57,339 nt of DNA from Syntrophomonas sp. (lineage in GTDB: Bacteria > Bacillota > Syntrophomonadia > Syntrophomonadales > Syntrophomonadaceae), in contig JAENYG010000022.1 of the NCBI GenBank assembly GCA_016841875.1, forward strand, positions 1 through 57,339, in the 5' to 3' direction. Numbering within the stretch: the stretch's first letter is position 1; every line of letters begins with the position of its first letter. The notes beneath the pieces were generated by a model that was not told where the DNA came from, ran no database searches, and saw only the letters and a list, made by a program, of their open reading frames with translations. Below are positions 30,156 to 38,050 of this stretch, in pieces. The position numbers were made by a program, and so were the translations under genes.

Positions 30156-30349
30156 AAACCGGACTGCTGCCCGGTTTCAGACCGATTACAGAAATGAATC
30201 TCGGCGTTATTTCAACAAGCCCGCTCAATCAACGTACTCAAGTACGCCTCAATCGCGGGCTCGTTTCATGCCTTGATCTTTGGTTCTGTAATCGCCCTGG
30301 CAGCTCGCCGACTTTGTCGACAACCTGAAACCGGACTGCTGCCCGGTTT
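30156..30349. repeat. Composite repeat element C1, flanked by 22-bp hairpin direct repeats
   Basis: Identical 22-base hairpins (AAACCGG, eight bases, CCGGTTT) lie at 30156-30177 and 30328-30349. Between them is an imperfect palindrome: GATTACAGAA pairs with TTCTGTAATC, an AGCCCGC/GCGGGCT pair lies inside, and CGTACT-CA-AGTACG is at the centre. Near the right end is ACTTTGTCGACAA. The second copy at 37780-38050 shares CAGACCGAT, GCGTTATTTCAA and CTTTGTCGACAA in the same order. No gene is inside. Confidence 0.75.
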
Positions 30350-37779: not shown

Positions 37780-38050
37780 AAGTATTGGGAAAATCCCAAT
37801 ACTCAGACCGATAACAAAAACCCACAGGATAACCCCGTACCGGGGCAACTGATGTGCCTTATGTTTCATTGCGGCACAATTTAGGGTGCAGTTGAAGTTC
37901 GAGCAAGGCTCAAAAATCAAAAAGAAACGAATATCTGCGTTATTTCAAAAAACCCTTACAGGACAACCCCGTACCGGGGCAACTGATGAGGGCTCCCGTC
38001 ATCGGTCTGGCAGTTTGTCTACTTTGTCGACAAACTAAGTATTGGGAAAA
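37780..38050. repeat. Composite repeat element C2 with nested repeats
   Basis: The left end is a perfect hairpin, AGTATTGGGA-AAA-TCCCAATACT (37781-37803). The right end repeats AAGTATTGGGAAAA (38037-38050), a 14-base direct repeat of 37780-37793. Inside are CAGACCGAT, GCGTTATTTCAA and CTTTGTCGACAA in the same order as in C1. A 31-base direct repeat (37824-37854 and 37958-37988, one mismatch, each with CCCCG-TAC-CGGGG) is nested inside. It lies between uvrB and the downstream-facing ATPase gene. Confidence 0.7.

What the first reader, a model, noticed from the sequence alone, without database searches (positions are those of the whole stretch)
30156..30349. Element C1: palindromic insert flanked by duplicated terminator-like hairpins
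Seen: two identical 22-base hairpins flank a roughly 150-base imperfect palindrome that shares ordered motifs with C2. The flanking hairpin differs between copies, so it belongs to the target rather than the element. Inference: an element that targets hairpins (perhaps terminators) and duplicates them, which would be an unusual insertion specificity.
Basis: partly seen in the sequence, partly recalled or inferred. Interest (0 to 1): 0.7.

Follow-up and report, generated by a model that had tools for sequence, protein, structure and literature searches.

The report
Mobile element that duplicates target hairpins
A 150-base gene-less jumping element in Syntrophomonas bacteria inserts at DNA hairpins (often transcription stop signals) and leaves a full copy of the hairpin on each side; its end sequence matches that of gene-carrying transposons of the IS1182 family, which do the same.

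Summary
A 150-bp element (30178-30327) sits between two identical 22-nt hairpins (30156-30177, 30328-30349). The same genome has 54 BLAST matches to it, and at least 30 copies across six related genomes are flanked by duplicated hairpins of 19-32 nt whose sequence differs from site to site. Orthologous empty sites carry one hairpin at eight loci, including C1 and C2. So the hairpin is the target and insertion duplicates it whole; every duplicated unit tested is a hairpin (30 of 30 with at least 7 of 8 foot pairs; random rate 0.0006), and 19 of 30 have a terminator-like T-run (7.6% expected). The element is a MITE (CAG...CTG ends, no gene). The likely source is an ISEfa7-like subgroup of IS1182 transposons: two IS copies in one genome of the same phylum end in the same 18 nt as one MITE end, and five gene-bearing copies in four Bacillota duplicate a whole hairpin. 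Precedents are IS1272/TnSha1 (IS1182 family; hairpin target, but deleted) and IS1630 (IS30 family; inverted repeats duplicated). I found no earlier description of whole-hairpin duplication in the IS1182 family or in a MITE. A source transposase of this subgroup was not found in the window's own draft genome.

The parts
30156..30177 (.). left copy of the target hairpin (7-9 bp stem); terminator-like on the minus strand
30178..30327 (+). MITE C1, 150 bp, ends CAG...CTG, no ORF of 80 aa or more
   Evidence: boundaries from the empty site in G002
30178..30193 (+). left terminal inverted repeat CAGACCGATTACAGAA (family consensus CAGRCCGATGACARAA); also pairs with 30284-30299
30310..30327 (-). right terminal inverted repeat; read inward CAGGTTGTCGACAAAGTC, 17 of 18 identical to the end of the IS1182-family IS in L325 (18 of 18 in other copies of the MITE)
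30328..30349 (.). right copy of the target hairpin (22-bp target duplication)
37782..37804 (.). target hairpin of C2, left copy AGTATTGGGAAAATCCCAATACT
   Evidence: single in G001-G004
37805..38037 (+). C2, longer mosaic member of the same MITE family (right end ...GACAAACTA)
38038..38050 (.). right copy of the C2 target hairpin, truncated (AGTATTGGGAAAA; 18 bp of hairpin plus flank deleted relative to G002)

Best explanation
C1 is a MITE (gene-less, trans-mobilised DNA transposon) of an ISEfa7-like subgroup of the IS1182 family. A DDE transposase acting in trans recognises the CAG...CTG ends and joins them to a target that is a stem-loop, chosen by shape. The two strands are attacked at the two 5' feet of the hairpin, so gap repair copies the whole hairpin and leaves one complete hairpin, often a working terminator, on each side. 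SHOWN: element boundaries, many copies, hairpin target, whole-hairpin duplication, empty sites, and the same ends and the same duplication in gene-bearing IS1182-family elements. INFERRED: action in trans, extruded cruciform or single-stranded hairpin as the substrate, attack at the 5' feet, and the idea that keeping a terminator on both sides makes insertions nearly neutral.
For: Thirty curated copies with hairpin duplications of 19-32 nt. Eight loci with single-hairpin empty sites: C1 (G002, G003), C2 (G001-G004), L004, L007, L010, L011, L013, L016. IS1182-family IS in G050: AGCAGAAGTGAAATCACTTCTGCT|CAGACTGTAGACAAA...(transposase)...GACTTTGTCGACAAGCTG|AGCAGAAGTGAAATCACTTCTGCT, and a second copy with a different duplicated hairpin; that right end is 18 of 18 identical to MITE right ends such as L003. 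The same architecture in Sutcliffiella (30-bp hairpin), Peribacillus (24) and Cytobacillus (35) plasmid copies. A G045 copy (same order) has end CAGATTGTAGACAAAT abutting a hairpin. NF033551 (IS1182) scores 474 and 449 bits for the G050 and G045 transposases, cut-off 270. Wan et al. 2017 drew whole stem-loop duplication as the outcome of 5'-foot attack (PMC5678879).
Against: The window's genome has only two IS1182 matches; the full one (C14) has different ends (GAGACCACTGAAAAA), the other is a contig-end fragment without the CAG end, and none has this subgroup's ends. The left end of the MITE is more diverged than the right from the IS ends. Some duplicated hairpins differ by 1-4 bases, and some copies have lost one hairpin. 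No transposition was observed.
Confidence: 0.83

Rival explanations
1. MITE mobilised by an IS1630-like IS30-family transposase, the first family reported to target and duplicate inverted repeats.
For: [quoted passage not shown] copies in M. fermentans M64 have 16-26 bp duplications (PMC3317919).
Against: IS30 transposases are essentially absent from the class: 2 of 63 genomes, one of them a contig-end fragment in G000 whose end lacks the CAG repeat. The MITE end matches IS1182-family ends instead.
Confidence: 0.05
2. Hairpin-element units amplified by recombination or replication slippage, with the hairpin carried along as part of the mobile unit.
For: Tandem arrays hairpin-element-hairpin-element-hairpin with near-identical units exist (L007/L008, L015/L017, L059, L114), so local amplification does occur.
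Against: Flanking hairpins are unrelated between dispersed sites and match the single hairpin present at the orthologous empty site, so the hairpin belongs to the target.
Confidence: 0.04
3. REP/RAYT-like single-strand mobilisation by a Y1 HUH transposase that recognises hairpins.
For: The genome has 8 Y1 transposase matches and the element is itself hairpin-rich.
Against: None of the 30 Y1 loci examined carries the element or its end motif. Y1 matches and element counts do not track each other (G037 and G009 have elements without Y1 matches at the threshold used; G025 and G028 the reverse). Y1 transposition gives no target duplication (general knowledge).
Confidence: 0.03
4. The hairpins and element form one conserved regulatory RNA or terminator device and are not mobile.
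For: The location is intergenic and the hairpins look like terminators.
Against: Empty sites, dispersed copies at unrelated loci, no Rfam match in the window.
Confidence: 0.01

Closest known systems
ISEfa7 and relatives (IS1182 family)
   Same: Ends CAGACTGTAGACAAAG, transposase of the same subgroup (54% identical to the G050 IS); relatives in Sutcliffiella, Peribacillus, Cytobacillus and G050 duplicate whole hairpins.
   Different: About 1.5-kb gene-bearing IS; the element here is gene-less and 148-392 bp. The ISEfa7 copy I read did not itself show a clean duplication.
IS1272 / TnSha1 (IS1182 family)
   Same: Targets hairpins by shape, including confirmed transcription terminators (PMC4923244; PMC5678879).
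   Different: Deletes or replaces the stem-loop and leaves no duplication; the element here keeps and duplicates it.
IS1630 of Mycoplasma fermentans (IS30 family)
   [quoted passage not shown]).
   Different: Different transposase family; 27-bp ends; 1.2-1.4 kb with a gene. The original paper was not held, so its details were not read.
RUP, BOX, Correia and other bacterial MITEs
   Same: Short, palindromic, multicopy, intergenic, trans-mobilised.
   Different: From general knowledge, their duplications are short and fixed; here the length equals the target hairpin.

Membership tests
MITE | short, multicopy, no transposase gene | tested here: met
   148-392 bp; 54 matches in G000; no ORF of 80 aa or more in the C1 element
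MITE | terminal inverted repeats shared with an autonomous transposon | tested here: met
   right end 18 of 18 identical to the IS1182-family IS in G050; left end shares CAG..G..GACA
MITE | target duplication at insertion | tested here: met
   empty sites with a single hairpin at eight loci
IS1182 family, ISEfa7-like subgroup | ends CAGAYTGTMGACAAA | tested here: met
   (right end; left end diverged)
IS1182 family, ISEfa7-like subgroup | whole-hairpin duplication by gene-bearing members | tested here: met
   L325, L318, L358, L360, L361
IS1182 family, ISEfa7-like subgroup | a transposase of the subgroup in the same genome | tested here: not met
   G000 holds only other IS1182 subgroups or fragments in this 90-contig draft; nearest subgroup member with a visible CAG end in the order is G045. 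This concerns the mobiliser's presence, not the membership of the ends.
IS1272-type stem-loop replacement | target hairpin deleted, no duplication | tested here: not met
   both hairpins retained at all curated sites
IS1630 (IS30) | IS30 transposase with matching ends | tested here: not met
IS1634 family (long duplications) | matching ends | tested here: not met
   IS1634 ends found are unrelated, e.g. GTCTTTGACACTT
REP/RAYT | element flanking a Y1 transposase gene | tested here: not met

The most novel reading that the evidence does not exclude
An IS1182-family subgroup and its MITEs follow a structure-set rule: the transposase attacks the two 5' feet of an extruded stem-loop, so the duplication length is read from the target's fold and not fixed by the enzyme, in contrast to IS1272 in the same family, which removes the stem-loop. 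Duplicating a terminator keeps neighbouring transcription units insulated.
Probability: 0.6. Interest if true: 0.75.

Novelty: new variant of a known kind. Interest (0 to 1): 0.62.

Why it matters
Target duplication length is normally a fixed property of a transposase. Here it follows the target's fold (19-35 bp). One family would then use two outcomes at hairpins, removal (IS1272) and whole duplication (this subgroup), which makes the proposed 3'-foot versus 5'-foot attack model directly testable. It also explains a class of duplicated terminators in Syntrophomonas-type genomes and suggests how an element can insert beside genes with little harm.

Tried and rejected
Rfam on the window: no match. 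IS30, IS1634, ISAs1 and Y1 transposase families as mobiliser: absent, or with unrelated ends. Gene-bearing copies of the MITE itself within the fetched loci: none, longest 392 bp. Isolated right ends (L071, L072, L073, L079) checked for a distant left end: no upstream hairpin copy found, so read as decayed copies. Literature on Syntrophomonas repeats: nothing relevant. The original IS1630 paper is not held.

Full report
OBSERVATION. The two 22-nt hairpins are exact copies at 30156-30177 and 30328-30349, separated by 150 nt. The insert folds as a long imperfect hairpin (z -3.2) and holds both cores in the same order as C2. It lies in an intergenic gap between a HAD-type hydrolase gene and a small membrane-protein gene (identified by reading the translations), both on the minus strand; the hairpin is terminator-like on that strand.

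COPIES. The 150-bp element has 54 matches in the window's own genome (3.97 Mb, 90 contigs) and matches in 19 of 61 genomes searched, mostly of the same family, plus one other family of the order (G037). Full copies start CAG and end CTG. A scan for hairpin direct repeats abutting the element recovered copies of 148-392 bp with duplications of 19-32 nt in G000, G001, G002, G033, G035 and G037. The duplicated unit differs from site to site and is always a hairpin: in 30 curated sites at least 7 of the 8 outermost base pairs form, against 0.065% of random window k-mers; 19 of 30 have a T-run next to the hairpin on at least one strand, against 7.6% expected. Hairpins usually begin with A and end with T (28 of 33), but GGCC...GGCC and other feet also occur, so the A and T are not part of the element.

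EMPTY SITES. At C1, G002 and G003 have one hairpin (ATAAACCGGACTGCTGCCCGGTTTAT; ATAAACCGGACTGGTGGCCCGGTTTAT) and no element. G001 has the hairpin followed by a 3'-truncated element that shares unusual letters with C1. Since G002 is closer to the window (91-93% identity) than G001 (81-84%), the simplest reading is insertion before these lineages split and precise loss in G002, perhaps by recombination between the hairpin copies; an independent insertion in G001 is not excluded. G003, more distant, shows the single-hairpin state. At C2, all four same-genus relatives have one hairpin, and the right copy in the window has since lost 18 bp. Six more sites have single-hairpin orthologues: L010 (G001, G002, G003), L013 (G001, G002), L004, L007, L011 and L016 (G001). 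The hairpin therefore pre-exists and is duplicated.

WHO MOVES IT. IS30 transposases are nearly absent from the class. IS1634 and Y1 loci lack the ends. ISAs1 is absent. IS1182 transposases are widespread. In G050 two IS1182-family copies are flanked by whole duplicated hairpins of different sequence, with ends CAGAYTGTAGACAAATGG and CAGCTTGTCGACAAAGTC. The second end is identical over 18 nt to MITE right ends such as L003 and is followed by a similar subterminal repeat. Relatives in Sutcliffiella, Peribacillus and Cytobacillus plasmids show the same ends and 24-35-bp whole-hairpin duplications. ISEfa7 of Enterococcus faecium has the ends CAGACTGTAGACAAAG. G045, in the window's order, has one end visible, abutting a hairpin. 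These transposases are 50-66% identical to the G050 one; the other IS1182 transposases of this clade are 25-34% identical, have other ends, and those read sit inside split hairpins.

MECHANISM. Shown: hairpin target, whole duplication, shared ends. Inferred: the transposase joins the element ends to the 5' feet of the stem-loop on the two strands; repair then copies the hairpin. Wan et al. (PMC5678879) drew this as pathway b for a stem-loop target, while proposing 3'-foot attack and removal for IS1272. Furi et al. (PMC4923244) showed that IS1272/TnSha1 targets hairpins, several confirmed as terminators, with partial deletion and no duplication. IS1630 (IS30 family) is reported to target and duplicate inverted repeats (original paper not read). 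Tandem hairpin-element arrays with near-identical units are best explained by later recombination or slippage between the duplicated hairpins.

NOVELTY. Hairpin targeting in the IS1182 family and inverted-repeat duplication in IS1630 are known. I found no report of whole-hairpin duplication by the IS1182 family or of a MITE family with this behaviour; the paper library is partial and ISfinder/TnPedia were not available, so this is a limited negative.

LIMITS. No subgroup transposase was found in the window's genome, which is a draft in which multicopy IS are often lost at contig ends. No wet-lab evidence.

Noticed in passing
L012, L019, L028, L031, C2 (37805-38037): Longer members carry inserted inner modules (e.g. 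CCCACAGGACCACAATTTGAGCTCGC... and its complement; CCCCGTACCGGGGCAACTGATG) in place of part of the core, so the family is a mosaic of hairpin modules.
   Followed up: no
C1 locus in G001 (L150) versus G002 (L149): C1 seems older than the G000/G001 split and precisely lost in the closer relative G002, perhaps by recombination between the hairpin copies.
   Followed up: partly
L007/L008, L015/L017, L059/L060, L114: Tandem arrays hairpin-element-hairpin with near-identical units, up to three elements and four hairpins.
   Followed up: partly
L275 (G002:C49): At the L003 site G002 carries a diverged element with end CAGGGTGTCGTAAAAGTCGACACCCTG directly after the hairpin: a second subfamily using the same target.
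   Followed up: no
L294/L337 (G000:C14:19921-21333), L296, L298: Other IS1182 elements with ends GAGACCACTGAAAAAGT sit between the two arms of a hairpin, a second insertion mode in the same family.
   Followed up: partly
L197, L220 (G053): Repeats GTTTGTAGGGTGCCTATGAGGAATCGAAAC and variants on both sides of IS1634 transposases look like CRISPR arrays interrupted by the IS.
   Followed up: no
L201, L221 (G025): IS1634 copies with direct repeats of many tens of bases, in keeping with that family's long duplications.
   Followed up: no
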